From Pseudobutyrivibrio ruminis CF1b (GTDB taxonomy: Bacteria > Bacillota > Clostridia > Lachnospirales > Lachnospiraceae), in NCBI RefSeq assembly GCF_000424005.1, contig NZ_AUJB01000009.1:62001-126000 (forward strand): a stretch of DNA of 64,000 nt, written 5' to 3'. The stretch's first letter is position 1, and each line of letters starts with the position of its first letter. Under the pieces are notes generated by a model. That model worked only from the letters and a program-made list of their open reading frames with translations. It did no database searches and was not told where the DNA came from. Position numbers and translations under genes: made by a program. Positions 412 to 26,890 of the stretch are shown in pieces.

Positions 412-1533
412 ATGGAGTTTAAAACAGAGACACCGACATTGGTATTTGATGGAGTAGCAGAGACACAGGAATTACCAGCAAATGCTGATAATGAGATGAA
501 GGAAGAAATCATCCTTTCAGAAGAAGAAAAAGCTCAGGTAGAAGCTTTTGCAAAACAGATTGATTTATCAAATTCAACCGCTATACTTAACTATGGTGCA
601 GGCACACAGAAGAAGCTTTCCGATTTTTCGGAAAAGGCTTTAGATAGCTTACGTACCAAAGATATGGGCGAAGTAGGCGATATGATTACTAAGCTTATTG
701 GTGAGCTTAAGAACTTTGATGCAGCTGAAGAGGAGAAGGGACTTAGAGCTCTTTTCAAGAAAAGCTCAAACAAAATTACAGCAATGAAATCTAAGTACGC
801 CAAGGTGGAGACTAACGTAAATGTTATTACCACTGAGCTTGAAAAGCATGAGACAACCCTGTTAAAGGATGTGGCTATGCTTGATCAGATGTACGATGCG
901 AACTTAGCATATTTTAGAGAGCTTTCTATGTACATCGCAGCTGGAAAGAAGAAGCTTGAAGAGACTAGAAACGGTGAACTTGTAGAGCTTCAGAGAAAGG
1001 CACAGGAAACAGGCCTTGCTGAGGATGTTCAGGCTGCCAAGGATTTAGCTGCTAAATGCGACAGATTTGAAAAGAAAATCCACGATTTACAGCTTACAAG
1101 AACAATCGCTCTTCAGAGTGGCCCACAAATCAGAATGGTACAGAGTTCTGATACAATGATGGCAGAAAAGATTCAGTCTACCATCGTAAATACAATTCCT
1201 CTTTGGAAGAATCAGATGGTTATTGCTATCGGTGTTGAGCATTCTAATCAGGCAGCAAAAGCCCAGAGAGAAGTATCTGATATGACAAATGAACTTCTCA
1301 AGAAAAATGCAGACGCCCTTAAAACTGCAACAATCGAGACAGTCAAAGAATCTGAGCGTGGTATTGTTGATATGGAGACAATCAAGCACACAAACGAGCA
1401 GCTTATCAGCACAATGGACGAAGTCTTAAAGATTCAGGCTGAGGGCAAGGAAAGACGTCGAAATGCCGAGCAGGAATTATTCCAGATTGAGCAGGAATTA
1501 AAGACAAAATTATTAGAGGCATCGAAATCATAA
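412..1533 (+). CDS. telA: TelA / toxic anion resistance family protein
   Basis: A 373-residue, almost entirely alpha-helical soluble protein without membrane segments or signal peptide, as expected for TelA (PF05816), a family first linked to tellurite and other toxic-anion or cell-envelope stress resistance. Long coiled-coil stretches fill the middle, including LVELQRKAQETGLAEDVQAA, and the C-terminus is charged. The start at 412 is preferred because a GGGAG-type ribosome site lies just upstream (about 401-406); the in-frame ATG at 328 lies deep inside the preceding gene. It follows the xpaC-like gene closely, the usual partnership, and is followed 3 nt later by a D,D-carboxypeptidase, which suggests an envelope-related transcription unit. 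The biochemical function of the family is not established. Confidence 0.85.
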   Translation: MEFKTETPTLVFDGVAETQELPANADNEMKEEIILSEEEKAQVEAFAKQIDLSNSTAILNYGAGTQKKLSDFSEKALDSLRTKDMGEVGDMITKLIGELKNFDAAEEEKGLRALFKKSSNKITAMKSKYAKVETNVNVITTELEKHETTLLKDVAMLDQMYDANLAYFRELSMYIAAGKKKLEETRNGELVELQRKAQETGLAEDVQAAKDLAAKCDRFEKKIHDLQLTRTIALQSGPQIRMVQSSDTMMAEKIQSTIVNTIPLWKNQMVIAIGVEHSNQAAKAQREVSDMTNELLKKNADALKTATIETVKESERGIVDMETIKHTNEQLISTMDEVLKIQAEGKERRRNAEQELFQIEQELKTKLLEASKS

Positions 1534-1536
1534 GTT

Positions 1537-2928
1537 ATGAGTTGTAAAAGAGTATTAAGTAAATTTCTAGCATTTATATTTTTAGTTAACGCATTAGTAA
1601 TATGCAATTATCAAACAGTAAAGGCCGAAGATTACTGGCCTACCAGTGTAGATGTTGTGGCTGAATCGGCCATAATAATGGAGCAGGAAACGGGAACCAT
1701 CCTTTATTCCAAGAATATCGATGAGGTTCATTTCCCAGCCAGTATCACAAAAATCATGACAGCATTGATTGTCCTTGAAAATTGTGAGCTGGATGAGACA
1801 GTTAAGTTTTCAGCTGAAGCAGTATATGGAACAGAGCTTGGTTCTTCAAGTATCGCAAGAGATGTAAATGAGGAAATGACCGTAGAGCAGACCCTGTATG
1901 GAATGATGCTTGAGTCTGCAAATGAATGTGCATATGCTTTAGGCGAGCATGTGGCAGGAGACGTTCCATCATTTGTAAAGATGATGAATGAAAAGGCCAA
2001 GGAACTGGGATGTACCAACACCCACTTCAATAACACAAACGGTCTTCCAGATGATGAGCACTACACAACAGCACATGATATGGCGCTGATTGCCAGGGCT
2101 GCATATGCTATTCCAAAGTTTGCAGAGATTGTAGGAACAAAGAATTACACTATTCCACCAACAAATAAGCATCCAGATCCAACACCACTTAATAACCATC
2201 ATCAGATGCTTCACTACTACAAGTCAAACAAGTACATTTACGAGTATTGTCTTGGTGGAAAGACTGGATATACAGCAGTTGCAGGAGCTACGCTTGTTAC
2301 TTACGCAAAGAAAGACGGAATGACATTGATTTGCGTTGTAATGAAGGACACTACCGCAGACGAATACACTGATTCAACAAGTCTTTTTGAATACTGTTTC
2401 GATAATTTCAGCACCTACAATGTGGCTGATTTTGCATCAATATCAGAGGATAATGTAAACATAACAGGTGTTCTTAGCGAGAACAGCGAGTTGATTAAGA
2501 TTGATAAAAAGGGACTCGTAGTTATTCCTAAGACAGCCAGTGTTTTAGATGTTACTTCAGAGGTTATACCTTACAGTGACAGTGAGAATAAGTCAGTAGT
2601 TGGCCAGCTTCAGTATTCATATGCTGGAAGAAAGGTAGGACAGGCTAATCTGGTATTTACCAATGCAGAAGTAGAAAGTTATCCATTTGATAACATCCCT
2701 GTAGAGCAGGGAGGAAGCGGAAAGGAATATATTCAGGTAGATTATCCAAAGATTGGATTAATTGTACTGGCTATCATAGCTATCATAGCTTTGATTCTCT
2801 TCATTAGAAGCAGATCCAGCGAGATATTATTGTTCAGACACAGATATAAAAGCAGACACTCAAGAACAAAGAAGTCTAATATGACAATAATAAGGGATAA
2901 CGGCAAAAAGAGAAGAAAAAGAAGATAA
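1537..2928 (+). CDS. dacF: D-alanyl-D-alanine carboxypeptidase (penicillin-binding protein, DacF type)
   Basis: A secreted, membrane-anchored serine D,D-carboxypeptidase (peptidase S11) that trims the terminal D-Ala of peptidoglycan stem peptides. An N-terminal signal segment (about residues 5-30) is followed by the three active-site motifs: SITK (69-72, nucleophile Ser69), SAN (127-129) and KTG (242-244). A PBP5-type C-terminal domain (about 285-385), one hydrophobic anchor (about 407-425) and a very basic tail follow. The length of 463 is normal for the family, and all catalytic motifs are intact. It starts 3 nt after telA, probably in one operon with it, and ends before a clear hairpin terminator. 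The exact paralogue name (dacA, dacB or dacF) cannot be decided from sequence alone. Confidence 0.92.
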   Translation: MSCKRVLSKFLAFIFLVNALVICNYQTVKAEDYWPTSVDVVAESAIIMEQETGTILYSKNIDEVHFPASITKIMTALIVLENCELDETVKFSAEAVYGTELGSSSIARDVNEEMTVEQTLYGMMLESANECAYALGEHVAGDVPSFVKMMNEKAKELGCTNTHFNNTNGLPDDEHYTTAHDMALIARAAYAIPKFAEIVGTKNYTIPPTNKHPDPTPLNNHHQMLHYYKSNKYIYEYCLGGKTGYTAVAGATLVTYAKKDGMTLICVVMKDTTADEYTDSTSLFEYCFDNFSTYNVADFASISEDNVNITGVLSENSELIKIDKKGLVVIPKTASVLDVTSEVIPYSDSENKSVVGQLQYSYAGRKVGQANLVFTNAEVESYPFDNIPVEQGGSGKEYIQVDYPKIGLIVLAIIAIIALILFIRSRSSEILLFRHRYKSRHSRTKKSNMTIIRDNGKKRRKRR

Positions 2929-2977
2929 AAGACATGGTTTGTCTTGAATAGAATAAAATACGACAGATTTAAATAAT

Positions 2978-3020
2978 AAACGACAGTCAAAATTTCCAAT
3001 GACTGTCGTTTTGCTTTTTT
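2978..3020 (+). terminator. Rho-independent terminator after the carboxypeptidase gene
   Basis: The inverted repeat AACGACAGTCA / TGACTGTCGTT with a loop of about 10 nt is followed by TTGCTTTTTT. It ends the xpaC-telA-dacF unit and separates it from the convergent gene that ends at 3059. Confidence 0.85.
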
Positions 3021-3058
3021 ATAGACTTGAAATAAATTTATTCATTTAAAGAAACATA

Positions 3059-3571
3059 TTATCTATTTATCAGACTATTTACTAGAATTTCCAGCTGATG
3101 TGCGTTGGTAGTATACAATAATATGCCGTTGGAAGAATTAATCATAGTTATTACTTTATCTTCAAAAGTAGCGGACTCAGAAAGCAATTGATAGAGATAA
3201 TCCTTATACTGGCCGTCTGCTTTAAGGAATAAAGTTTCATATTCTGGAAGAGGAACAAGCTCAGCACGGGTCTTCTTTAAAAGAAATGCTATTTCTTTGT
3301 CCTGATTAAGCTGATCTTCAGTTTTATTGATAATGAAATATCCACGTTCATCCTTTGGCATGCCAAGAGCTTTTACAGCACGCTGAACCTGCTTGGTAAG
3401 ACTGTCACTGGCAGGATAGAGTGACTGGAAGTAGCTCATAAAGTCGGCAGCAGTTTTAAAGTGTTCGTTGGTACCACGCTCTAAAACCTCGGTCATAAGA
3501 ATCTTTTTTATTACCTTCTCACACTCTTTGCGGGAAGGGTTTTTCCTTAAAGTAATAGTTTCCTCAGACAT
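3059..3571 (-). CDS. ArgR-like transcriptional regulator (distant)
   Basis: A 170-residue protein with an N-terminal helical part (about 8-75) that resembles the winged-helix domain of arginine repressors, including a helix pair around SLTKQVQRAVKALGMPKDE that fits the ArgR recognition-helix region. The C-terminal 60 residues have the alternating pattern of the ArgR oligomerisation domain (ITMINSSNGILLYTTNAHQL, compare the family's G-T-A-pocket loop). The canonical GT-A-hAIA arginine-binding motif is not clearly preserved. The gene is monocistronic, divergent from the AbiE-like pair, with a perfect 12-bp palindrome in its own leader, which suggests autoregulation. The family call is tentative; a plain HTH protein of unknown function is the alternative. 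Confidence 0.4.
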   Translation of the reverse strand: MSEETITLRKNPSRKECEKVIKKILMTEVLERGTNEHFKTAADFMSYFQSLYPASDSLTKQVQRAVKALGMPKDERGYFIINKTEDQLNQDKEIAFLLKKTRAELVPLPEYETLFLKADGQYKDYLYQLLSESATFEDKVITMINSSNGILLYTTNAHQLEILVNSLINR

Positions 3572-17332: not shown

Positions 17333-17803
17333 TTTGCTTATAGAATCGCTTGCGCTATAGTTAGAATCGTATTCGTTTTTATCCCATGTTGAGTAGTAAT
17401 CCATAATTGAATGGTCATCTTCATTAGTCTGGTATGTGTAAGGGCGGCCGTCATCAGTCTTTGCCTGGACACAGAATACACCAGGAGAAACTTCTATAAT
17501 TGCAGAAATTTTATTAGAAAAATCAACCTCAAACTTGCCACTATTTGTCATATGACCATAGTCAATTGTTGAATCAGTGAACTGTACATAGTATGTAGCA
17601 GGGAAGTTATCATTTTCTCCTGAAATAGAATTTGAACCCCAAATTCCTTCAATGGAAGAAGGTTCAGAAGTAGGTTCAGTAGAAGGTTCCTGTGTTGAAG
17701 AAATAGCTGTTTCCGAAGCAGTATTATCCGAGCTTGCTCCACATCCTATAATTGAAGCACCGATAGCCAATGTCAGCATAAATATCATTATTCTTTTTTT
17801 CAT
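17330..17803 (-). CDS. Small lipoprotein, unknown function
   Basis: A 157-residue putative lipoprotein. The N-terminus MKKRIMIFMLTLAIGASIIG is a typical signal peptide with lipobox IIGC (Cys21), followed by a Ser/Thr/Glu/Pro-rich linker (about 24-52) and a small beta-rich domain (about 53-150) that begins IEGIWGSNSISG. That beginning resembles small extracytoplasmic beta-barrel modules of Firmicute lipoproteins, but I do not recognise a family. The mature protein should sit on the outer face of the membrane. It is monocistronic on the minus strand, with AGGAGG-type ribosome site (on the plus strand TTCCTCC at 17811-17817). Confidence 0.75.
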   Translation of the reverse strand: MKKRIMIFMLTLAIGASIIGCGASSDNTASETAISSTQEPSTEPTSEPSSIEGIWGSNSISGENDNFPATYYVQFTDSTIDYGHMTNSGKFEVDFSNKISAIIEVSPGVFCVQAKTDDGRPYTYQTNEDDHSIMDYYSTWDKNEYDSNYSASDSISK

Positions 17804-17912
17804 GTAATTATTCCTCCTAACTGTAATACATGATGTGATACAGTTATAGCATATTTACTATTTTATTGTCAAAATGGCTTTAGATTATTTTAGATTTTAC
17901 TGTGGTTGGTAA

Positions 17913-17969
17913 GTGGTGTGCAAAACTTATTAATAGCTATAGATAAGTATAGTGCAAGAGTAATTGAGA
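17913..17969 (+). repeat. Possible degenerate copy of the 57-nt junction element
   Basis: Aligned without gaps to the five clear copies, this stretch keeps 16 of the 24 columns that are invariant in those five, including GTGCAAA-like left-block bases and TAAGTATAG at exactly the same offset as in the copy at 24784. The right end (TTACAA) is lost. It lies in the intergenic region before the DUF1294 gene. Chance similarity in AT-rich DNA is possible. Confidence 0.25.
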
Positions 17970-18036
17970 AGGTATGAAATATAAGTGAGAAATGGTATAT
18001 TAAATATAGCAATATATTTACGGGAGAATGCGGTAT

Positions 18037-18306
18037 ATGATTATAAATTATCTAGTGATTGTGAATGCCCTTGGCCTGGCAGCAATGGGGCTTGATAAAC
18101 AGAAGGCCATTAGAAATCAGTGGAGAATTCCAGAGAAAACACTTTTCCTAATAAGTGCCATTGGAGGAAGCATTGGAACATTCGTAGGGATGTATCTATT
18201 TCGCCACAAGACAAAGCATTGGTATTTTGTAGTTGGAATGCCAGCCATATTGGTGGCACATGTGGTGATTGGATTTTTTTTATATAGCAGGATGTATATT
18301 GGATAA
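18037..18306 (+). CDS. DUF1294 family membrane protein
   Basis: An 89-residue protein of the DUF1294 family, with the family hallmark MGLDKQKAIRNQWRIPEKTL (residues about 17-36), a glycine-rich hydrophobic segment GGSIGTFVGMYLFRHKTKH and a last hydrophobic stretch (about 64-84). Two to three membrane segments are visible. Function is unknown; a cold-shock/OB-like extension found in some members is absent. Start choice: GGGAG (18022-18026) lies 10 nt before ATG 18037, while the in-frame ATG at 18028 is only 1 nt from it, so 18037 is preferred. It is followed 15 nt later by the GlsB-type gene. Confidence 0.82.
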   Translation: MIINYLVIVNALGLAAMGLDKQKAIRNQWRIPEKTLFLISAIGGSIGTFVGMYLFRHKTKHWYFVVGMPAILVAHVVIGFFLYSRMYIG

Positions 18307-18321
18307 GGAGAATACATAGTT

Positions 18322-18558
18322 ATGATGACAACAATTACAGGATTATTATTCGGAGCACTGGCAGGATTCATTGCCACAACTCTTATGAACGAGAAGTCAG
18401 GATGGATAAAGAATATTGTTTTAGGTGTAGCCGGCGGATTTGTTGGCGGATACGCTTTTAAATTGATTGGAATTTCAGCAAACGGACAGTTTGGAAGCCT
18501 TATAACATCCGTTGCTGGCGCTTGCATTTGTATTTGGGTAGGAAGAAAATTGTTCTAA
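18322..18558 (+). CDS. GlsB/YeaQ/YmgE family stress-response membrane protein
   Basis: A 78-residue hydrophobic protein with three membrane segments and the glycine-rich pattern of the GlsB/YeaQ/YmgE (transglycosylase-associated) family: LLFGALAGFIATTLM, IVLGVAGGFVGGYAF and a final SVAGACICIWVGRKLF. The family is linked to envelope or general stress, without a known biochemical activity. It shares an operon with the DUF1294 gene. Six nucleotides after its stop begins the first clear copy of the 57-nt element. Confidence 0.9.
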   Translation: MMTTITGLLFGALAGFIATTLMNEKSGWIKNIVLGVAGGFVGGYAFKLIGISANGQFGSLITSVAGACICIWVGRKLF

Positions 18559-18564
18559 AGACAA

Positions 18565-18621
18565 GTGTTGTACAACATTAGAATATAAGGCGGAAATACT
18601 GTCGAACAATACTTACAAAAG
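18565..18621 (+). repeat. 57-nt junction element, copy A
   Basis: First of five ungapped 57-nt copies. Left block TGTTGTACAACA (18566-18577), a perfect palindrome; right block TGTCGAAC (18600-18607) and TTACAAAA (18613-18620). It starts 6 nt after the GlsB-type stop codon and ends 12 nt before the RHH start codon. In the frame of copy B it contains a stop codon (TAA), so conservation is not due to coding. Confidence 0.8.
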
Positions 18622-18633
18622 GGGGAGTTTACA

Positions 18634-19131
18634 ATGCCAAGAGTTAATCTATCTATTAATCAGGAGATGTATGACAAGATCAAACATCAGGCAGAGATTC
18701 AGGGGATTTCAGTCAACAACATGATCTACAGTCAGCTGCAGAAGCAGTATGGGGATGACGAGTTTGATTATATTGTTGCACTTGATTGTTTAAAGCAGGA
18801 GGCTTCAGAGAAGAGTGGTTATTTTAGTTTATGGGAGCTTCCAACATTTAAAGAGATTAGCAATATTGATTCAGAACAGGGGAAGAAGGAATCTCCTGAG
18901 CAGATAAGAGCCCGCCTGGGCAAAATGTTCCATGACTCAGTGAAGAATGGTCAGGTATGGGACGTAATGATTCATACTGGAAAGATTGAGGTGCCTCAGC
19001 ACAAGTCTAAAAGACCAGGAAGGGCTGTGATTTACGCTAAAAAGAGTGAGCAGAGGAAACTGTTGTACAACACTCCGGATGACATATTTAATATTGTTGA
19101 ACAACACTTACAAGAGGCTATAAATCAATAA
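18634..19131 (+). CDS. Ribbon-helix-helix-like DNA-binding protein, unknown function
   Basis: A 165-residue protein whose first 45 residues look like a ribbon-helix-helix domain: beta strand RVNLSINQEMYDKIKHQAEI and a second helix GISVNNMIYSQLQKQ. The middle (about 50-110) is polar and not recognised, and the C-terminal part has KRPGRAVIYAKKSEQRKL. RHH proteins bind operators as dimers and are usually autoregulators or antitoxins, but no toxin gene is adjacent. The gene lies between copies A and B of the 57-nt element; copy B is inside its 3' end and supplies residues 143-161. It is the only clear DNA-binding protein in the array, which makes it a candidate to act on these elements (inference). 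The ribosome site GGGGGAG precedes the ATG. Confidence 0.7.
   Translation: MPRVNLSINQEMYDKIKHQAEIQGISVNNMIYSQLQKQYGDDEFDYIVALDCLKQEASEKSGYFSLWELPTFKEISNIDSEQGKKESPEQIRARLGKMFHDSVKNGQVWDVMIHTGKIEVPQHKSKRPGRAVIYAKKSEQRKLLYNTPDDIFNIVEQHLQEAINQ
19060..19116 (+). repeat. 57-nt junction element, copy B (inside the RHH gene)
   Basis: Left block TGTTGTACAACA (19061-19072), right block TGTTGAACAACA (19095-19106) and TTACAA (19108-19113). Unlike the other copies it lies inside a coding sequence, in frame, as exactly 19 codons near the C-terminus of the RHH protein; it ends 15 nt before the end of the stop codon and 19 nt before sfsA. Here the right block is also nearly palindromic, which shows the two halves as direct repeats 34 nt apart. 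Confidence 0.8.
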
Positions 19132-19135
19132 ACTG

Positions 19136-19783
19136 ATGAAGTATTCAAATATAGTAAATGCAAAATTTATATCCCGTCCAAACAGGTTCATAGCACATGT
19201 AGAACTGGATGGAAAAGACGTTACTGTACATGTTAAGAACACAGGTCGATGCAAGGAGCTGTTGCTTCCAGGGCGAACTGTGTATCTGGAAAAGGCTAGT
19301 AATCCAGAACGCAAGACACCGTATGATTTGGTGGCTGTAGATACGCCAATAGGGATAATTAATATCGATTCCCAGGCACCAAATGCAGTAGTGAAGGAAT
19401 GGCTCTTAAAACAGGATTATACGGTGGTACAGCCGGAGTATAAGTACGGTGATTCCAGAATAGATTTCTACATGGAAAAAGGAGAGGATAAATACCTTTT
19501 AGAAGTAAAGGGATGTACTCTCATAAAAGACGGGATAGGCTATTTCCCAGACGCTCCTACAGAAAGAGGAGTGAAGCACCTTAGAGAGCTGGCCAAAGCG
19601 GTAGATAAGGGTTTTAAAACCATGGTAGCTTTTGTAATCCAGGTAGAGGGAGTGACAGAAGTGCGACCTAACGTGGAGACCCATCCGGAATTTGGAATGG
19701 CTTTGCAGGGAGCAAAGGATGCAGGCGTAGAAGTATTGTGCCTGGCTTGCAATGTTTGGGAAGATGGATTGGAGATAATTTGA
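19136..19783 (+). CDS. sfsA: SfsA family protein (sugar fermentation stimulation protein homologue)
   Basis: A 215-residue SfsA-family protein. Characteristic stretches are the N-terminal OB-like part (RFIAHVELDGKDVTVHVKNT, GRCKELLLPG) and the nuclease-like core with SRIDFYMEKGEDKYLLEVKG, where the D...E-x-K pattern resembles PD-(D/E)xK nucleases, then FPDAPTERGVKHLRELAKA. E. coli SfsA was named for effects on maltose metabolism and binds DNA; the molecular function is unsettled. It begins 4 nt after the RHH stop and its stop overlaps the TTG start of the next gene (TTGA), so translation is coupled. Length is normal. Confidence 0.92.
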   Translation: MKYSNIVNAKFISRPNRFIAHVELDGKDVTVHVKNTGRCKELLLPGRTVYLEKASNPERKTPYDLVAVDTPIGIINIDSQAPNAVVKEWLLKQDYTVVQPEYKYGDSRIDFYMEKGEDKYLLEVKGCTLIKDGIGYFPDAPTERGVKHLRELAKAVDKGFKTMVAFVIQVEGVTEVRPNVETHPEFGMALQGAKDAGVEVLCLACNVWEDGLEII

Positions 19784-20886
19784 AAAAAAGAATGGTTTTG
19801 ATTGCCGCATGCATAAGTATTATTGCAGCAGGATGTGGCGTGCAAAATGAACCGGCAGAAAATAAAGAGGTGTATGAAGAAGTAATCGAGACTGCGGCGG
19901 GGCCTGTCGAAGAGGTTACTGGAGAATATGATTTCACTCTTTGTTTTGCCGGAGATATAAACTTTGATGAAAACTGGGTGACAACCCAGTTTTTGAATAC
20001 CTGTGAAAATGGAATCTATGATTGCATCGATTCAAAGATGGTAGAAACCATGCAACAGGCGGACATAATGTGGATAAATAACGAGTTCACATATAGCAAT
20101 GGTGGACAACCTTTAGACGGAAAAGCTTATACTTTCAGAGCTAATCCTGAGAGGGTAGAGAACCTGGAATTGTTAGGTGTGGATATTGTAGGTCTGGCAA
20201 ATAATCACGTTTATGATTACGGAAAAGATGCGTTGCTGGATACCTTTGATACATTGCAGCAGGCAAATATCCCATACGTGGGAGCAGGCCGTGATTTGGC
20301 GGAAGCCAGCGCTCCAGTCTACATGGAAGTAGATGGAAAGACGGTAGCATTTGTAGCAGCAAGCAGAGCCGAGAAATATAAGATGACACCACAGGCCACC
20401 GAAGAAGAGCCTGGAATATTACGTTGCTACGATACAGAGATTTTTGATCAGGAGATAGCAGAGGCAGATGCCAATGCGGATATAGTGGTAGCATTACCAC
20501 ACTGGGGCACAGAATATTCCACTGAGCTTGAACCTGTTCAGTCAGAGACAGCAAGAGAATACATAGATGCTGGAGCAGATGTTGTCATCGGAGCACATAC
20601 ACATTGCCTGCAGGGATTTGAGTTTTATAAAGATGTACCGATTGTATACAGTTTGGGAAATTATTGGTTCAACGAGAAGACCTTAGATACCATGTTGGTA
20701 AACATCCATTGTTTTGGAAACGATGAAGAGGACCACATGGAAGTGATTATCACTCCAGGATTACAGTCTAACCTTAAGACTACATACGTCAGCAATCCAG
20801 AAGACCAGAGGAAATTATATGAGCGATTAGAGGATATTTCCTTTGGAGTAGAGATTAATGATGATGGAAAGGTGATTCAGAAGTAA
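19780..20886 (+). CDS. CapA family lipoprotein (poly-gamma-glutamate synthesis-like metallophosphatase fold)
   Basis: A 368-residue secreted lipoprotein. The TTG start at 19780 overlaps the sfsA stop, has GGAG upstream and directly gives a lipoprotein signal (KKRMVLIAACISIIAAGCG, lipobox AAGC). The remainder is a PGA_cap/CapA domain with metal-ligand-like motifs: FAGDINFDENW, WINNEFTYSN, GLANNHVYDYGKDALLDT, ALPHWGTEY, GAHTHCLQGFEFY and YSLGNYWF. CapA proteins participate in poly-gamma-glutamate capsule export or act as extracytoplasmic phosphatase-like enzymes; no capB/capC genes are nearby, so a capsule role is uncertain. A start at 19738 would lack a signal peptide and overlap sfsA more. 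The stop codon abuts copy C of the 57-nt element. Confidence 0.88.
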   Translation: MKKRMVLIAACISIIAAGCGVQNEPAENKEVYEEVIETAAGPVEEVTGEYDFTLCFAGDINFDENWVTTQFLNTCENGIYDCIDSKMVETMQQADIMWINNEFTYSNGGQPLDGKAYTFRANPERVENLELLGVDIVGLANNHVYDYGKDALLDTFDTLQQANIPYVGAGRDLAEASAPVYMEVDGKTVAFVAASRAEKYKMTPQATEEEPGILRCYDTEIFDQEIAEADANADIVVALPHWGTEYSTELEPVQSETAREYIDAGADVVIGAHTHCLQGFEFYKDVPIVYSLGNYWFNEKTLDTMLVNIHCFGNDEEDHMEVIITPGLQSNLKTTYVSNPEDQRKLYERLEDISFGVEINDDGKVIQK

Positions 20887-20943
20887 CTGTAGTACAACAG
20901 TATAATTACAGGGATAAAAAGTGTAGAACGATATTTACAAAGC
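20887..20943 (+). repeat. 57-nt junction element, copy C
   Basis: Begins immediately after the CapA stop codon (20884-20886). Left block TGTAGTACAACA (20888-20899), right block TGTAGAAC (20922-20929) and TTTACAA (20934-20940). The stop codon TAG occurs in the frame used by copy B. It ends 30 nt before the ATG of the cysteine hydrolase. The T-to-A change in the left block (TGTAG) is mirrored in the right block (TGTAG). Confidence 0.8.
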
Positions 20944-20973
20944 TTGAAAATAAAGGATTTAGGAGAAGATGTA

Positions 20974-21495
20974 ATGAGAAAATTACTTGTAGTTGTAGAT
21001 ATGCAAAAGGATTTCGTAGATGGAGCACTCGGTACTAAGGAAGCAGTAGCTATAGTACCTGCAGTAATCGAAAAGATAAAGTCCTACGATAAGAAGGATA
21101 TCTTTGTGACAAGGGATACACACCAGCCAGACTACATGGAGACACAGGAGGGCCACAACCTTCCGGTGGAACATTGCGTGGAGGGAACAGCAGGCTGGGA
21201 ACTTGATAAAGAGGTTGCAGCAGTTGTAGATGGAGCTACATTTGTTAACAAGCCAACATTTGGATCTGTGAAACTGGCAGAGATGATTAGTGACATCGCA
21301 AGCAAAGAAGATATCGAGATTGAGCTCATAGGTCTTTGCACAGATATCTGTGTTGTATCAAACGCACTTATGTTGAAAGCACACATGCCAGAGGTACACA
21401 TCAGCGTGGATTCAAAATGCTGCGCAGGAGTAACACCAGAGAAGCACGAAGCAGCCCTTGAAACCATGAGATCTTGCCAGATAGACGTGAGATAA
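20974..21495 (+). CDS. Cysteine hydrolase, isochorismatase/nicotinamidase family
   Basis: A 173-residue alpha/beta hydrolase of the isochorismatase-like family. The catalytic Asp is in LLVVVDMQKDFVDG, the metal-ligand-like motif is TRDTHQPDYMET, and the catalytic cysteine is in LIGLCTDICVVSNAL, preceded by the usual cis-peptide region. The length and the THQPDY / CTDICV combination favour a nicotinamidase-type enzyme (nicotinamide to nicotinate) but a different amide substrate cannot be excluded. Start at 20974 chosen for the GGAGAAGA ribosome site; the longer frame from 20944 has none. It is the only gene between elements C and D. Confidence 0.88.
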   Translation: MRKLLVVVDMQKDFVDGALGTKEAVAIVPAVIEKIKSYDKKDIFVTRDTHQPDYMETQEGHNLPVEHCVEGTAGWELDKEVAAVVDGATFVNKPTFGSVKLAEMISDIASKEDIEIELIGLCTDICVVSNALMLKAHMPEVHISVDSKCCAGVTPEKHEAALETMRSCQIDVR

Positions 21496-21510
21496 GTACA
21501 AGAATGCTAA

Positions 21511-21567
21511 GTGTAGTACAACAGTTAGATTAGGTGCGGGGGAAGTGTAGAACGAGAGTTACAAACA
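21511..21567 (+). repeat. 57-nt junction element, copy D
   Basis: Starts 15 nt after the cysteine hydrolase stop. Left block TGTAGTACAACA (21512-21523), right block TGTAGAAC (21546-21553) and GTTACAAA (21559-21566). The centre is unrelated to that of the other copies. It ends 16 nt before the TTG start of the helicase gene. In the copy B frame it has two stop codons. Confidence 0.8.
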
Positions 21568-21583
21568 GTGGGGGATTGCAAAG

Positions 21584-24358
21584 TTGGATAATAAATTTAT
21601 TACCAATTATACAGAAGAAACTTTTTTAGATAGAGTTCGAGATAACTTAAGAAAATGTAGTAAATTTTGTTTTTCTGTTAGTTTTATAAAAAAAGCGGGT
21701 TTAGCATTACTTTCAAAAGATATAGAACTAGCCTTACAAAGAGGTGTTGAGGGTAAAATAATAACATCTACTTATCAAAATTTTACTGACATAGAGTCAC
21801 TTAAAAGTTTCTTACTTTATATGGAAAAATATCCTTCCTTTGAATGTCACTTAGATTTTGAAAGTTTCTATGACAATTCTTATACAACTATTGGATATCA
21901 TACAAAAGGGTATTATTTTGAATTTGATGATAAAGCAGAATTAATTGTTGGAAGTTCAAATATTACAAGATATGCTTTGCTAAAGAATATTGAATGGGAT
22001 TTAATTGTTAAAGATGAAAAAAGCAACTCTGTATTTAAGGAGATGTTGTATGAGTATGAGGATAAATGGAACGGAACATATAAATTAGATAACGAGCTTG
22101 TAAAAAAGTATTTAACAAAAATAAACTATGCCATTGAAAGATGGGATATGGATTATGATTTGGAGGAATCGAAAGTTAATCCAAATTATATGCAAAGAAA
22201 TGCCTTAAAAGAATTAAATAGATACAGAGTGATGGGGCTACATAAAGCACTTATAATAGCTGCTGCTGGTAGTGGAAAAACATTTTTAGCAGCGTTTGAT
22301 GTAAGAAATTTTCAACCTAAAAAGATGCTATATATCGTTCACGAGGGTTCTATCATGGAAAAAGCTCTCGAAACATTTCAAATGGTATTTGGAAATAGTG
22401 TATCTTATGGTATCTATAATGCAGATAATAAGGAGCTGAATGCTGATTTTTTGTTTACAGGAAATCAAATCATGAGCAAAAATCTTAATCTGTTTTCGCG
22501 AAATGAGTTTGACTATATCATTTTAGACGAGTGTCACAGAGCAACAGCTCCAACTTATAGAAAAATAATAGAATATTTTGAACCAGAATTTCTATTAGGT
22601 CTTACAGCAACACCAGAAAGAATGGACAACGAAGATGTTTTTGATCTGTTTGATGCAAATGTACCTTTTGAGTTAAGACTTAAAGATGCCATAATTAACG
22701 AATTAGTTGTTCCATTTCATTACTATGGAATAAGAGACAAATTGATAGATTACGGGTTGCCAAAAGCTAAGGAAAGAAAGCTGATAGCACAACTTTCTTC
22801 AGTTGAGCATTGTGCATTTATACATGAAAAAATAGAGGAACATAGACCAAACGGAAAATTAAAGGCTTTAGTTTTTTGTAAAGATATTAATCATGCACGT
22901 ATGATAGGCGAAGAATTAGAAGAATACTATCATACAGCCTATTTAACTGGAAGAAATAAAGTAGGAGAAAGAATACGAGCTTTTAATGATTTACAAGATG
23001 ACAGTAAAGAACTAGAGGTGCTTTGTACAGTAGATATTCTAAATGAAGGTGTAGATATACCAGGTTGTAATATGGTTTTATTTTTACGCCCAACAGAAAG
23101 TTCTACTGTTTTTATTCAACAACTGGGACGTGGTCTAAGAAAATATGAAAATAAAGAATATGTTACTGTTTTAGATTTCATAGGTAATAGTTATAAAAGA
23201 AGTGTACAAATAGCTTTTGCCTTGGGAAGTATAGGAGAGACATTTGTTTTAGAAAAAAGGTTAATGCACAAACTTGTGGAGGATAATTTTGCAGCTTTAG
23301 GGTTAGAAAAATATGGTGTACAGATTAATATTGATAAAGAGAGCCAAAAAGAAATAATCGAATATATTGATCAAGAAAATTTCAATAGATGGTCATATTT
23401 AGAGCAAGATTATAAGAATTTCAAAAAATATATTAACAGTGAATACCCTCCAAAACATACAGATTATTTATACAATGATTGTGCTCCGAATATACTAAGA
23501 TTTATTAAGACAAAAAAAGAAGGAAAAGTAGTAGGGTGTTATTATAATTTCTTAAAAGAGATAGAAGATGGGTTACCATACTTCACTGAAGAACAGATTG
23601 AATTGTTAAAATATGTATCAAACCTTTTGCCGCTTGTAAGAAAATGTGAATTTTTGATTTTAAAGGAGCTAATAGAAAAAGAGTGTAATAAGGAAGAGAT
23701 ACAAAAAGTATTAATTGAAGAATCCTGTAGAGTTGAAGAAATAGAACATGCTATAAAGTTTATGAAGAATAGAAAAGCAATTTATGAAGCAAATAGTATT
23801 TATTCTATTTCAGTAAAAATGGATGACGAATTTAAAAAGCATTTAAAAGATCTTCTTGAATATGGTCTAAATCAGTATGAAACAGATTATAAAAATAATG
23901 AAAAATTCTTGTTGTGGCATAATTACAGAATGGATCAAGTCCAATTAAAATGTTTAAAGGATCCAGGACATACACAAAAAGGTACATACTTTTATGGTGA
24001 TGAAGCAATTTTATTTGCCTCACTTAAGAAAGATGCAACTGTTGAAGAACGTCTAAATTATAAAGATAAATTTATAGATAGTAATTTATTTCAGTGGGAA
24101 TGTGAGAATAATATTAGTGCAAATGAATTAAAGGCATTGAGGTTGTGTAAATATGTCCACATTTTCGTAAGAAAAGTTTCATCAGAACATGGTTTGACAT
24201 TACCTTTTACTTATGTAGGAGAAGGTAGTTTTTCTAACGAAAGACGACAAGAAAATATAGATAATGATGGTAAAATTAATATAACATATTTATATGACAT
24301 ACCAATGAAAGACTCATTACCAGATTACCTACAGTATGATTTTGGAATAGCAAAATAG
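21584..24358 (+). CDS. PLD-like domain plus DEAD/DEAH (superfamily 2) helicase with DUF3427-type C-terminus
   Basis: A 924-residue protein. The N-terminus (about 1-165) is phospholipase D-like with a single H-x-K motif (YHTKGY, His106/Lys108) and GSSNITRYAL. Superfamily 2 helicase motifs follow: Walker A AAAGSGKT (about 226-233), DECH (about 315-318), TATP (341-344), FCKDINHARM, DILNEGVDIPG and QQLGRGLRK. The C-terminal 350 residues fit DUF3427, ending with the family-like GLTLPFTYVGEGSF. The PLD and helicase combination suggests a nucleic acid-directed enzyme, often seen in accessory or defence regions; a defence role is inference. The gene is visibly more AT-rich than its neighbours and uses CAA for Gln and TTA for Leu where neighbours prefer CAG and CTT, a sign of transfer. 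The TTG start at 21584 has GTGGGGGA 8 nt upstream. A NUDIX gene follows after 12 nt. Confidence 0.9.
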   Translation: MDNKFITNYTEETFLDRVRDNLRKCSKFCFSVSFIKKAGLALLSKDIELALQRGVEGKIITSTYQNFTDIESLKSFLLYMEKYPSFECHLDFESFYDNSYTTIGYHTKGYYFEFDDKAELIVGSSNITRYALLKNIEWDLIVKDEKSNSVFKEMLYEYEDKWNGTYKLDNELVKKYLTKINYAIERWDMDYDLEESKVNPNYMQRNALKELNRYRVMGLHKALIIAAAGSGKTFLAAFDVRNFQPKKMLYIVHEGSIMEKALETFQMVFGNSVSYGIYNADNKELNADFLFTGNQIMSKNLNLFSRNEFDYIILDECHRATAPTYRKIIEYFEPEFLLGLTATPERMDNEDVFDLFDANVPFELRLKDAIINELVVPFHYYGIRDKLIDYGLPKAKERKLIAQLSSVEHCAFIHEKIEEHRPNGKLKALVFCKDINHARMIGEELEEYYHTAYLTGRNKVGERIRAFNDLQDDSKELEVLCTVDILNEGVDIPGCNMVLFLRPTESSTVFIQQLGRGLRKYENKEYVTVLDFIGNSYKRSVQIAFALGSIGETFVLEKRLMHKLVEDNFAALGLEKYGVQINIDKESQKEIIEYIDQENFNRWSYLEQDYKNFKKYINSEYPPKHTDYLYNDCAPNILRFIKTKKEGKVVGCYYNFLKEIEDGLPYFTEEQIELLKYVSNLLPLVRKCEFLILKELIEKECNKEEIQKVLIEESCRVEEIEHAIKFMKNRKAIYEANSIYSISVKMDDEFKKHLKDLLEYGLNQYETDYKNNEKFLLWHNYRMDQVQLKCLKDPGHTQKGTYFYGDEAILFASLKKDATVEERLNYKDKFIDSNLFQWECENNISANELKALRLCKYVHIFVRKVSSEHGLTLPFTYVGEGSFSNERRQENIDNDGKINITYLYDIPMKDSLPDYLQYDFGIAK

Positions 24359-24370
24359 AAAGAAAAATTT

Positions 24371-24775
24371 ATGAAAACAATCCGCGTAGTTGCAGCAGTA
24401 ATTAAAGCAGAGAACAATGAAGGTCAGCCTATGATTTTTGCTACCCAGAGAGGTTACGGAGATTATAAGGATGGCTGGGAATTTCCAGGTGGAAAGATTG
24501 AAGAGGGGGAGACACCTCAGCAGGCTCTTGTTAGAGAAATTCAGGAAGAGCTTGATACAATAATCCAGGTAGGCGATTTAATTGATACCATCGAGTATGA
24601 TTATCCTACATTCCATCTTTCTATGGATTGTTTCTGGAGTCAGATTGTGGAAGGTGATTTGGTTCTTAAGGAGCATGAAGCAGCAAGATGGCTCACTAAG
24701 GAAACCATTGATGAAGTGGATTGGTTACCAGCGGATATCACACTTATAGAGAAGGTTAAAGAAGCAATAGAATAA
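24371..24775 (+). CDS. mutT: NUDIX hydrolase, MutT type ((deoxy)nucleoside triphosphate pyrophosphohydrolase)
   Basis: A 134-residue NUDIX enzyme. The Nudix box is complete: GGKIEEGETPQQAL followed by VREIQEEL (about 41-62), with the upstream FATQRGYGDYKDGWEFPGGK typical of MutT/8-oxo-dGTP diphosphatases. The C-terminal AARWLTKETIDEVDWLPAD is also MutT-like. It should hydrolyse damaged or surplus nucleoside triphosphates. It begins 12 nt after the PLD-helicase; helicases with DUF3427 frequently neighbour or are fused to MutT-like NUDIX domains, so the pair may work together (known association, role here inferred). Its codon use (CAG for Gln) is host-like, unlike the helicase. Confidence 0.93.
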   Translation: MKTIRVVAAVIKAENNEGQPMIFATQRGYGDYKDGWEFPGGKIEEGETPQQALVREIQEELDTIIQVGDLIDTIEYDYPTFHLSMDCFWSQIVEGDLVLKEHEAARWLTKETIDEVDWLPADITLIEKVKEAIE

Positions 24776-24783
24776 ATGTATAA

Positions 24784-24840
24784 CTGTTGTGCAACACTGT
24801 CGCCATGAGTGATGTAAGTATAGAACGTCATTTACAAAAG
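24784..24840 (+). repeat. 57-nt junction element, copy E
   Basis: Starts 8 nt after the NUDIX stop. Left block TGTTGTGCAACA (24785-24796), right block TATAGAAC (24819-24826) and TTTACAAAAG (24831-24840). It ends 44 nt before the flavodoxin-type gene start. No later copy was found, so the flavodoxin and Dabb genes that follow are not closed by an element. Confidence 0.8.
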
Positions 24841-24884
24841 GCGGAAATTAAGTAAAGAGACATAATAAAGCAGGGGGAAGAATA

Positions 24885-25991
24885 ATGAAACTATTAATTC
24901 ATGACTACAGTAGGGATGAATGGGAGAAAGTTGCCTCGGATTACGAAGGCTGGAAGGTTATTGCAGATGATGGTAGCATAAAACCATGCACTGGTTGCTT
25001 TGGATGTTGGCTCAAAACTCCAGGTCAGTGCGTCATAAAAGATGGCTATGATCAGATGGGGAAGCTTATCCATGAGGCAGAGGAAATTCTTGTTATCAGC
25101 AAGTACACCTACGGAGGCTTCAGTGGTTTTGTAAAGAATGTGTTCGATAGAAGTATCGGATATTTGTTACCTTTTTTCCGTTTCTACAAAGGGGAAATGC
25201 ATCACAAACCAAGATACAGAGAGCATAAGAAGATGACCTTCGTTTTCAGAGGAGTTGGACTTACTGAGGATGATAAGATTAAAGCAAGGAAATACGTAAA
25301 GGCTGTGGCTACAAATCTACATGCAAAGATTATAGATGTCAGATTTGAGGAATGTCAGATAGATGTCGTGGCAGAGCAAACAAAAAAGATAGTGACTGTG
25401 GGAAAAACGATTCTACTCAACTGTAGTCCGCACGGAGAAAATGCCAATTCTAAGAAGTTTCTGGATGTAATCGCAGGAGAGTTGGAAGGCGATGTGACAA
25501 ACATTAACTTATCGTCTTATGTGAATAAGTTAGATGAGCTTGCGGATACTGTAATGTCTGCAGAAAAGTTAGTTCTCGGCATGCCTTTGTATGTAGATGG
25601 TATTCCATCTTTGGTAGTAAGAATGATGGAACATTTGGAAAAACAAGGTATTTCCAATAAAAAAGTTTATGTTGTGGCTAATATGGGATTCTATGAGAGT
25701 AAACAGCTTGAGAATCTTATGAGTATGGTTAGAGATTGGTGCGATGTGTGCGGTATAGATTATTGTGGTGGTACTGCCGTCGGTGCCGGCGGAATGATGG
25801 GCGCAGTAATAAAGTATGGAAGTAATGGCCCAGGCAAAAATGTGTATGAAAGCCTTGTAACACTTAGCGAGAAGATTTCTAAATCTGAACCTATATCAGA
25901 TGTTTATACCAATGCTAATAAATTCCCACGTTTCCTCTATTTTCTTGAATGTAATTCCAGAATGAGGAAGGGAATGAAGAAAGCCATATAG
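24885..25991 (+). CDS. Tandem flavodoxin-like / NADPH-dependent FMN reductase family protein
   Basis: A 368-residue protein with two flavodoxin-like domains. The first (about 1-165) has the cysteine cluster CTGCFGCWLKTPGQCV (about 36-51), typical of iron-sulfur flavoproteins, and the FMN-binding SKYTYGGFSGFVKNVFDR. The second (about 173-330) repeats the fold with ILLNCSPHGENANSKKF (the P-loop-like phosphate-binding start), LVLGMPLYVDGIP and VGAGGMMGAV. It may be an FMN-dependent reductase or electron-transfer protein; the cysteine cluster suggests an Fe-S site. Tandem duplication of the fold is unusual, but the substrate is unknown. The C-terminal 35 residues are basic and extra. The ribosome site GGGGGAAG precedes the ATG. 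Confidence 0.8.
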   Translation: MKLLIHDYSRDEWEKVASDYEGWKVIADDGSIKPCTGCFGCWLKTPGQCVIKDGYDQMGKLIHEAEEILVISKYTYGGFSGFVKNVFDRSIGYLLPFFRFYKGEMHHKPRYREHKKMTFVFRGVGLTEDDKIKARKYVKAVATNLHAKIIDVRFEECQIDVVAEQTKKIVTVGKTILLNCSPHGENANSKKFLDVIAGELEGDVTNINLSSYVNKLDELADTVMSAEKLVLGMPLYVDGIPSLVVRMMEHLEKQGISNKKVYVVANMGFYESKQLENLMSMVRDWCDVCGIDYCGGTAVGAGGMMGAVIKYGSNGPGKNVYESLVTLSEKISKSEPISDVYTNANKFPRFLYFLECNSRMRKGMKKAI

Positions 25992-26042
25992 GAGTTGAAT
26001 TATAAAACGATGCAATAACAAGCAATATATAAGGAGGATGTT

Positions 26043-26345
26043 ATGGTTAAACATGTAATTCTATGGGTATTGAAGGAAGAGTATTCTGCTGAAGAGAAGG
26101 CTAAGATTAAAGCTGAAATCAAGGCAGGGCTTGAAGGACTTAAGGGCCAGATTCCAGGTCTTATTGAAATTAAAGTTAACACAGAAGGACTTGCAAGCTC
26201 AAATGCAGACCTTATGTTGGATTCAACTTTTGAGGATGAGGCAGCTCTTAAAGTATATGCTACACATCCAGCTCATGTAGCAGTAGCTGACGGAAAGGTT
26301 CGTCCATTTACAGCATCAAGAGTATGCTTGGATTATGAAGTGTAA
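26043..26345 (+). CDS. Dabb family protein (stress-responsive alpha/beta-barrel)
   Basis: A 100-residue small protein with the Dabb signature: KHVILWVLKEEYSAEEKAKI near the N-terminus, IPGLIEIKVNTEGLA in the middle and EAALKVYATHPAHVAVADGK (about 71-90), the conserved histidine loop. The family forms dimeric ferredoxin-like alpha/beta barrels and is often stress-induced, with no single known reaction. It follows the flavodoxin-type gene by 51 nt with a strong AAGGAGG ribosome site, and a bidirectional terminator follows its stop. Confidence 0.9.
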   Translation: MVKHVILWVLKEEYSAEEKAKIKAEIKAGLEGLKGQIPGLIEIKVNTEGLASSNADLMLDSTFEDEAALKVYATHPAHVAVADGKVRPFTASRVCLDYEV

Positions 26346-26350
26346 GGATT

Positions 26351-26382
26351 AAAAAGGGAGCCAACCGGCTCCCTAAAATTTT
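26351..26382. terminator. Bidirectional terminator between Dabb and XRE-like genes
   Basis: Stem GGGAGCC-AACC-GGCTCCC (26356-26373), with AAAATTTT to the right and a TTTTTAAT tail on the minus strand. It can serve both convergent genes; the regulator's stop lies at 26381. Confidence 0.8.
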
Positions 26383-26890
26383 ACTTATCGGAATATTCTT
26401 TGAGTTTGTCTGCATTGATGTTTCCGGAATTAATAGTATTTGCAACCCACAGCTTGAGCGCTTCGACTGTATGGTCAATCTGGTCGAGCTGTTTTTGTAT
26501 ATGTACGAAATCAGGAATCTCGTCATCTGAAACAATGCCGTCGGCTGTAATTTCAATGAGACGATCCTTTTGTTTATCTAAAGAGTTTAAAGCTGAAAGC
26601 ATACCAAGTACGATTTCTGAAAGAGAAGAAACTTTTACTTCAGGAACGGACTCCTTACCAATGCGACACTCGTGTGTGCAGTAGTAGTTGCAAAGCTCTG
26701 GTTTCTTATATGCAGCAGCCATATCTACAACATCCTCTGGATATATAGAAGCTTTACCTGTCTCAAGTTTCTCGAGGCGGCTTTCGCTGATTGTGCCAAT
26801 GAGTTCACTAGCCTGTGCACGTGTAAGGCCAGCAGCCTCTCTACTTTCAAAAAAGATATTCTTGTCGTCCTTAATTGACTTTCTGCCCAT
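26381..26890 (-). CDS. XRE-like helix-turn-helix regulator with helical C-terminal domain
   Basis: A 169-residue protein. Residues about 12-65 form a Cro/C1-type HTH: ESREAAGLTRAQASELIGTI with recognition helix SESRLEKLETGKASIYPED. The central segment holds cysteines in ELCNYYCTHECRIG (about 70-83), a possible metal or redox site. The C-terminal 80 residues are helical (LSALNSLDKQKDRLIEITAD) and may dimerise. This arrangement fits XRE-type regulators with a C-terminal helical domain. The gene is monocistronic on the minus strand, with AGGTTT-like ribosome context just upstream (GGAGGTTTACATG on the minus strand). Target genes are unknown. Confidence 0.75.
   Translation of the reverse strand: MGRKSIKDDKNIFFESREAAGLTRAQASELIGTISESRLEKLETGKASIYPEDVVDMAAAYKKPELCNYYCTHECRIGKESVPEVKVSSLSEIVLGMLSALNSLDKQKDRLIEITADGIVSDDEIPDFVHIQKQLDQIDHTVEALKLWVANTINSGNINADKLKEYSDK

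What the first reader, a model, noticed from the sequence alone, without database searches (positions are those of the whole stretch)
18565..24840. Five copies of a 57-nt element mark the gene junctions of an accessory array
Copies at 18565, 19060, 20887, 21511 and 24784 align without gaps at exactly 57 nt. By my reading 24 of 57 columns are identical in all five: left block TGT-W-GT-R-CAACA, right block T-x-T-x-GAAC and A-x-TTACAA. The centre of about 20 nt is variable but of fixed length. All are in the same orientation. Four begin 0-15 nt after a stop codon (copy C abuts the stop), and the next start codons lie 12-44 nt beyond. Together they divide the segment into units: RHH gene; sfsA-capA; cysteine hydrolase; PLD-helicase-mutT; then flavodoxin-type and Dabb genes. 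This looks like a gene-cassette array. However, the integron attC consensus (RYYYAAC / GTTRRRY) is absent and no recombinase is in the window. Alternatives: operator of a regulon, or an unknown recombination site.
Basis: seen in the sequence. Interest (0 to 1): 0.88.

Follow-up and report, generated by a model that had tools for sequence, protein, structure and literature searches.

The report
Repressor operators between shuffled accessory genes
A 57-letter DNA sign repeated between neighbouring genes of a rumen bacterium is most likely the paired landing site of a small DNA-binding protein encoded in the same array, inherited from a mobile element, rather than a new kind of gene-cassette recombination site.

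Summary
In detail: five 57-nt copies, one orientation, 25 (not 24) invariant columns, none in 100 shuffles, no other copy found in the genome. Copy B, however, lies inside the RHH reading frame. The element was found in five Pseudobutyrivibrio-group species (5 of 29 genus genomes; 4 records in a scan of 84,980 species' genomes), always in one array with the RHH gene. Each copy is two palindromic sites 34 nt apart. A model trained only on array copies also picks out the promoters of RHH homologues in the four genomes that carry RHH without the array; these have TTGACA-17-TATAAT and two TTGCACRACACTCAT sites, again 34 nt apart. A 38% homologue in viral contigs has a like design. So the element is very probably the paired operator of the RHH protein, copied to gene boundaries. 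Turnover of units between species is real, but the integron reading fails: no attC box pair (0 of 18), no integrase over cut-off (0 of 5), no hairpin covariation. Unexplained: in four species the last copy has no same-strand gene before the convergent gene.

The parts
18565..18621 (+). Element A: paired sites just upstream of the RHH gene (18566-18577 and 18600-18611); TATAAG at 18584-18589 read by eye as -10-like, no matching -35 seen
   Evidence: the hexamer scoring preferred TAGAAT nearby
19060..19116 (+). Element B: paired sites inside the 3' end of the RHH ORF, read as coding sequence; sfsA starts 19 nt further on
20887..20943 (+). Element C: abuts the capA stop codon; hydrolase gene starts 30 nt further on
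21511..21567 (+). Element D: between cysteine hydrolase and PLD-helicase genes
24784..24840 (+). Element E: between mutT-type and flavodoxin-type genes
18634..19131 (+). RHH (Arc-like) DNA-binding protein, 165 aa; the last ~27 residues are encoded by element B and its flanks
   Evidence: weak Arc / RHH_5 / Arc-like-repressor matches; homologues
17908..17960 (+). Possible decayed element upstream of DUF1294 (model R1, E about 0.1 per genome: uncertain)
18028..18306 (+). DUF1294 gene: the gene before the first element in G008, G009 and G022 (in G000 a Transgly_assoc gene follows it)
18322..18558 (+). Transgly_assoc (GlsB-type) gene before element A
19136..19783 (+). sfsA: one copy in each of 28 of 29 genus genomes (E <= 1e-20), inside the array only in G000, G008, G022
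19780..20886 (+). capA-type (PGA_cap) gene; start uncertain (ORF caller 19738, TTG at 19780 in frame; 19786-20883 was scanned)
20974..21495 (+). isochorismatase-type cysteine hydrolase
21584..24358 (+). PLD + ResIII helicase + DUF3427 protein (best PADLOC model: type IV restriction), TTG start
24371..24775 (+). NUDIX (mutT-type) gene
24885..25991 (+). flavodoxin / FMN-reductase-type gene
26043..26345 (+). Dabb gene, last of the array
26381..26890 (-). convergent 169-aa gene ('HTH' is my own label, not from a call) that closes the array in all five species

Best explanation
Each 57-nt element is a paired operator for the Arc-like RHH protein encoded in the array: two palindromic sites of the type TGTTGnrCAACA with starts 34 nt apart, bound by RHH dimers, probably cooperatively. 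The protein and its upstream operator derive from a mobile element lodged next to rpsR, where the operator overlaps the RHH promoter and gives autorepression. In the Pseudobutyrivibrio xylanivorans group the operator was copied to the boundaries of neighbouring genes, so that the bound protein controls or insulates each unit of a changing accessory array (repression at copies with a promoter, block of read-through at copies without one). Shown by sequence: site pairs, fixed spacing, link to RHH promoters, conserved arms, changing gene content. Inferred: binding itself, repression, road-block, origin from the mobile element, and how copies arose.
For: (1) Model R1, built from 16 array copies only, without structure, over 29 genomes: outside the arrays the best hit is the promoter of the RHH homologue in G013 (E 5e-4 per genome); then one partial hit inside a G002 gene (0.0054), then the RHH promoters of G024, G021 and G002 (0.006-0.008). 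The RHH promoter is the best hit of its genome in three of four, second in G002. I had already noticed these promoters by eye, but they did not enter the model. (2) Those four (RHH 43-50% identical) have TTGACA-17-TATAAT with one TTGCACRACACTCAT site in the spacer and a second 34 nt on; array copies also have 34 (two decayed ones 33). (3) Two IMG/VR contigs (perhaps one virus) with a 38% homologue: same promoter type, two GTTGCACAA sites, offset 36 counted by eye. (4) RHH-upstream copies G026_A (TTGAAA-17-TATAAT) and G009_2 (TTGTAA-17-TATAAT) keep hexamers around the sites (by eye). (5) All 5 genomes with elements have RHH in the array. (6) Terminal copies without a following gene keep their arms: G008_x v G022_x 3/34 arm and 9/22 centre positions differ, fourfold sites of the adjacent sfsA 42/79. 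(7) No hairpin covariation, as expected for protein sites.
Against: 4 of 18 copies (the last in G008, G022, G009, G026) have no same-strand gene before the convergent gene, odd for a plain operator. B, C, D, E and the terminal copies show no -10 at the position used by G009_2, G026_A and the ICE promoters (C has TATAAT three bases early), and promoter-like matches over the region are at chance level (31 v 32.0). In the window's genome A has only a -10-like TATAAG. Profile hits for RHH are weak: best 1.8e-5 among nine members, below Pfam's cut-off for the window protein, none at E 0.001; no fold could be computed. 14 of 16 right arms read GAAC where ICE and viral sites read GCAC. Arm conservation is partly built in, since most copies were found by their arms; 10 of 14 compared pairs give p<0.05, the closest A and B pairs do not. 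R1 scored only 150 first-look candidates per genome. Three distant RHH-like proteins show no such site in the stretch printed. Another protein could bind the sites.
Confidence: 0.68

Rival explanations
1. Gene-cassette site: an unknown recombinase inserts and removes gene-plus-element units at the 57-nt sites; RHH binding is an accessory role or a coincidence of origin.
For: Unit content differs between species at one locus; elements hug or overlap preceding stops (17 of 18 within 61 nt; three overlap the stop by two bases); the last copy has no same-strand gene before the convergent gene in 4 of 5 species; sfsA, single copy in 28 of 29 genomes, sits in the array in only three.
Against: No integron integrase over cut-off (0 of 5); no attC box pair (0 of 18); no covariation; no copy outside this locus with the patterns used and no strong model hit outside the arrays and RHH promoters, so no visible cassette pool; no tyrosine recombinase in the window.
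Confidence: 0.1
2. Insulator or silencer: RHH bound at both ends of each unit bridges the elements and keeps a mobile-element-derived array quiet or separates its transcription units; promoter control is not the main role.
For: Copies occur before and after genes and mostly lack promoters while arms stay similar; all 5 terminator-like matches in 17800-26500 are on the - strand, none on the strand of the array (4.2 expected by chance).
Against: No direct evidence of bridging; the RHH relatives show one operator pair in the stretches examined.
Confidence: 0.15
3. Centromere-like or ParB-type site of the ancestral integrative element (which carries ParA and ParB), surviving as a relic.
For: ParA and ParB genes precede RHH in G024 and, by reading and a ParA match, in G013; RHH-type ParB proteins such as pSM19035 omega bind sites overlapping promoters (passages of PMC9499535).
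Against: The sites go with RHH, not ParA/ParB: G021 and G002 keep RHH and sites without a ParA match over 35% of the query in the fetched stretch, and no ParA match was found in the window or the fetched array stretches.
Confidence: 0.05
4. Miniature inverted-repeat transposon or RNA hairpin element scattered between genes.
For: Arms are inverted repeats; most copies are intergenic.
Against: Only five copies found, one locus; centre unconserved at fixed length; folding not clearly better than shuffles except copy B; no covariation; no Rfam match beyond one chance-level hit elsewhere.
Confidence: 0.02

Closest known systems
Omega (RHH ParB) regulon of plasmid pSM19035
   Same: A small RHH protein of a mobile element binds repeated sites overlapping promoters of its own and other genes (passages of PMC9499535).
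   Different: Omega sites are 7-10 contiguous 7-bp repeats; here two palindromic sites 34 nt apart, with copies also at gene ends and inside an ORF on a chromosome.
Arc-type repressors (P22 Arc, Arc-like phage repressors)
   Same: N-terminal match of the RHH alignment to Arc structures and Arc-like PHROGs.
   Different: Weak matches; this protein has a further conserved region beyond the RHH part and, by inference, serves several sites in an array.
Integron cassette arrays / CALIN
   Same: Short element after most genes, one orientation, turnover of units.
   Different: No integrase over cut-off, no attC box pair, no conserved folded structure, fixed centre length, a regulator gene instead of a recombinase gene. 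Complete integrons are very rare in Firmicutes (passages of PMC9024848).

Membership tests
Integron / CALIN | integron integrase (IntI) in the genome | tested here: not met
   TIGR02249: 0 of 5 genomes over the curated cut-off, all 5 with weaker matches as in the controls; a CALIN would lack it anyway
Integron / CALIN | attC boxes RYYYAAC and GTTRRRY in each site | tested here: not met
   0 of 18 copies carry both; 6 of 18 carry a single GTTRRRY
Integron / CALIN | conserved folded single-strand structure | tested here: not met
   16 copies: covariation score 0.072 v shuffled mean 0.079, 367 of 500 shuffles as high; folding ordinary except copy B
Integron / CALIN | units differ between genomes while sites stay | tested here: met
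   five species, four different contents
RHH autoregulated operator | RHH-fold regulator encoded beside the sites | tested here: inconclusive
   weak Arc / RHH_5 profile hits; structure prediction never ran
RHH autoregulated operator | same site in the promoter of homologous regulators | tested here: met
   4 of 4 array-free homologues in the genus and 2 of 2 viral contigs; not seen for 3 distant RHH-like hits in the family
RHH autoregulated operator | protein binds the sites and represses | not testable with these tools
   needs gel shift and reporter assays
RHH regulon (as pSM19035 omega) | sites overlap promoters of several controlled genes | tested here: inconclusive
   promoter hexamers seen at the RHH-upstream copies of G009 and G026, not clearly at B, C, D, E or terminal copies
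MITE | dispersed copies with conserved interior | tested here: not met
   one locus, variable interior
MITE | target-site duplications | not tested
   not examined

The most novel reading that the evidence does not exclude
Operator-bounded gene array: a mobile-element RHH protein and its paired operator have become a platform in which each captured gene, even a single-copy core gene such as sfsA, is placed between copies of the operator, so that the bound protein marks unit boundaries for both expression control and unit exchange, an integrase-free analogue of a cassette array.
Probability: 0.12. Interest if true: 0.85.

Novelty: new variant of a known kind. Interest (0 to 1): 0.52.

Why it matters
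It shows how a regulator brought by a mobile element may seed copies of its own binding site through an accessory gene cluster. If the boundary copies matter for gene capture, it would be a cassette-like system built on a repressor, testable by comparing neighbouring species with three and with five copies. It also warns that short repeats at gene ends are not enough to call an integron.

Tried and rejected
Integron/CALIN, hairpin/RNA element, MITE: see membership test. Promoters at every element: rejected, only some copies have hexamers. Plasmid search with the window RHH and phage-record search with the G013 RHH gave nothing; a single-sequence scan of viral contigs gave none, an alignment scan two. 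Family-wide searches: with the window protein 2 of 299 genomes, with a profile 5 of 397, of which three are weak, distant RHH-like hits without the site in the upstream stretch printed (for G438 and G174 the gene start is uncertain). The G002 C8 hit lies inside a coding region and is taken as chance. sfsA neighbours differ between species, so no single ancestral sfsA site could be named. Five literature searches (titles and abstract starts seen) listed nothing on this element; they cover only the held open-access library. Of two papers I saw passages only.

Row handling: R1 was built from 16 of the 18 copies; the two decayed G026 copies, found by eye, were left out. One search scored 150 of about 1,500-3,500 first-look candidates per genome and its list was cut. 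One search dropped matches covering under 35% of a query. One search's operator pattern was written after seeing the ICE and viral promoters, and its 2 hits are the two contigs already known: a specificity check, not a discovery. Hexamers of G026_A and G009_2, the 36-nt viral offset, the UvrD end in G026 and the RepA/ParB reading in G013 were read by eye.

Full report
Observation. The five 57-nt copies are real. With up to 3 mismatches the pattern gives five hits in the window and none in any of 100 shuffles; the exact pattern finds only these five in the whole genome and the reversed control none. 25 columns within the 57 are invariant. Copy B lies inside the RHH ORF.

Distribution. Of 61 genomes (own included) three matched the strict pattern; of 29 genus genomes (own included) five matched with up to 3 mismatches, and the reversed control hit once, in G001. 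A scan of one genome for each of 84,980 species, with a centre free to vary from 16 to 28, gave four records: Butyrivibrio fibrisolvens 16/4, Pseudobutyrivibrio sp. 49, P. xylanivorans DSM 14809 and a buffalo MAG (the window's own genome may be left out there). No hit in viral contigs. These exact patterns would miss decayed copies.

Locus. In all five species the array ends at the same convergent 169-aa gene, 92-100% identical. Content differs. G000: DUF1294-glsB-A-RHH-B-sfsA-capA-C-hydrolase-D-PLD helicase-mutT-E-flavodoxin-Dabb. G008 and G022: DUF1294-A-RHH-B-sfsA-x. G009: DUF1294-1-UvrD-2-(run of N)-RHH with B in its end. G026: UvrD end-1-two DUF2798 genes-2-small ORF-A-RHH-x; its copies 1 and 2 are decayed and were found by eye. 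sfsA has one match in each of 28 of 29 genomes and lies in the array in three. The hydrolase has a match (E <= 1e-20) in 7 of 29 genomes: 78-80% identical in G010 and G024, 46-53% in four, and none in the other four array genomes.

What the element is. Each copy has two palindromic sites whose starts are 34 nt apart (33 in the two decayed copies). R1, a sequence-only model of 16 copies, was run over 29 genomes. At the lax limit E 1 all 29 genomes had some match. Outside the arrays the strongest was the promoter of the RHH homologue in G013 (E 5e-4), then an unrelated partial hit in G002 (0.0054), then the RHH promoters of G024, G021 and G002 (0.006-0.008). I had seen these promoters by eye before; they were not in the model. 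The genes (43-50% identity) carry TTGACA-17-TATAAT with one site in the spacer and another 34 nt on. A homologue at 38% in two IMG/VR contigs has the same design with 36 nt. RHH was found in 9 of 29 genomes: the five with arrays and these four. rpsR lies upstream, within about 8 kb, in 7 of 9; in G022 it was not in the 12 kb fetched and the G026 contig is short. In G024 RHH follows ParA, ParB and RepA_N genes and a conjugative coupling protein lies about 5 kb on; G013 reads alike. So the module probably belongs to an integrative element beside rpsR.

The protein. Profile hits to Arc, RHH_5 and Arc-like repressors are weak but agree on the N-terminus; at E 0.001 Pfam gave none for the window protein. 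In four of five array species the frame runs on through element B into a shared C-terminus; in G026 it stops before the element.

Constraint. Between G008 and G022 the terminal element differs at 3 of 34 arm and 9 of 22 centre positions; fourfold sites of the neighbouring sfsA differ at 42 of 79. Both differ less in the arms from the G026 terminal copy too (5/34 and 2/34 v 16/22 each). Of 14 pairs compared 10 give p<0.05; the closest A and B pairs have too few changes. Since most copies were found by their arms, some of this is built in. The arms do not covary as a hairpin.

Position. Of 18 copies 17 overlap or lie within 61 nt of the preceding gene's end (the exception: 134 nt); 14 have a same-strand gene downstream and 4, the last of each array in G008, G009, G022 and G026, have none before the convergent gene; the G009 one lies inside the RHH ORF. 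G009 copy 2 counts as upstream of RHH across the run of N.

Mechanism. Most likely the RHH protein binds each pair of sites. At its own promoter this is autorepression; at other boundaries it represses or blocks read-through. Binding and effect are inferred. Against: most copies show no promoter, and terminal copies have no target gene.

Cassette question. Unit turnover is cassette-like, but an integron integrase, attC box pairs and a conserved folded structure were not found, and no element was found outside this locus. How copies multiply remains open.

Novelty. An RHH protein with several operator sites is known, as in pSM19035 (passages of PMC9499535). Copies at gene ends and inside the regulator's own ORF, in a changing chromosomal array, are the new part; five literature searches of the held library listed nothing on it.

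Noticed in passing
L039: about 146-205 and 908-962 (G026): Two decayed elements with 33-nt site offset around a DUF2798 gene pair, suggesting loss of elements in progress.
   Followed up: partly
L020:3755-7230 (G008): Between rpsR and DUF1294 lies an insert with genes that read like RepA and a relaxase; the end of rpsR appears repeated after it, as for integration into the rpsR 3' end. Read by eye.
   Followed up: no
window 21584-24775: The PLD-helicase matches PADLOC type IV restriction models and the NUDIX gene a PADLOC candidate model; in G011 a 28%-identical helicase sits beside an 86%-identical NUDIX gene (L128).
   Followed up: partly
window 19060-19131: Element B serves as coding sequence for the RHH C-terminus in four species; 57 is a multiple of three, so the frame survives.
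   Followed up: partly
window 17908-17960: Weak model hit (E about 0.1) upstream of DUF1294, possibly a sixth, decayed element.
   Followed up: no
L021 (G009), between element 2 and RHH: A run of N lies there; both of its edges read like the start of an RHH gene. Left as it is.
   Followed up: no
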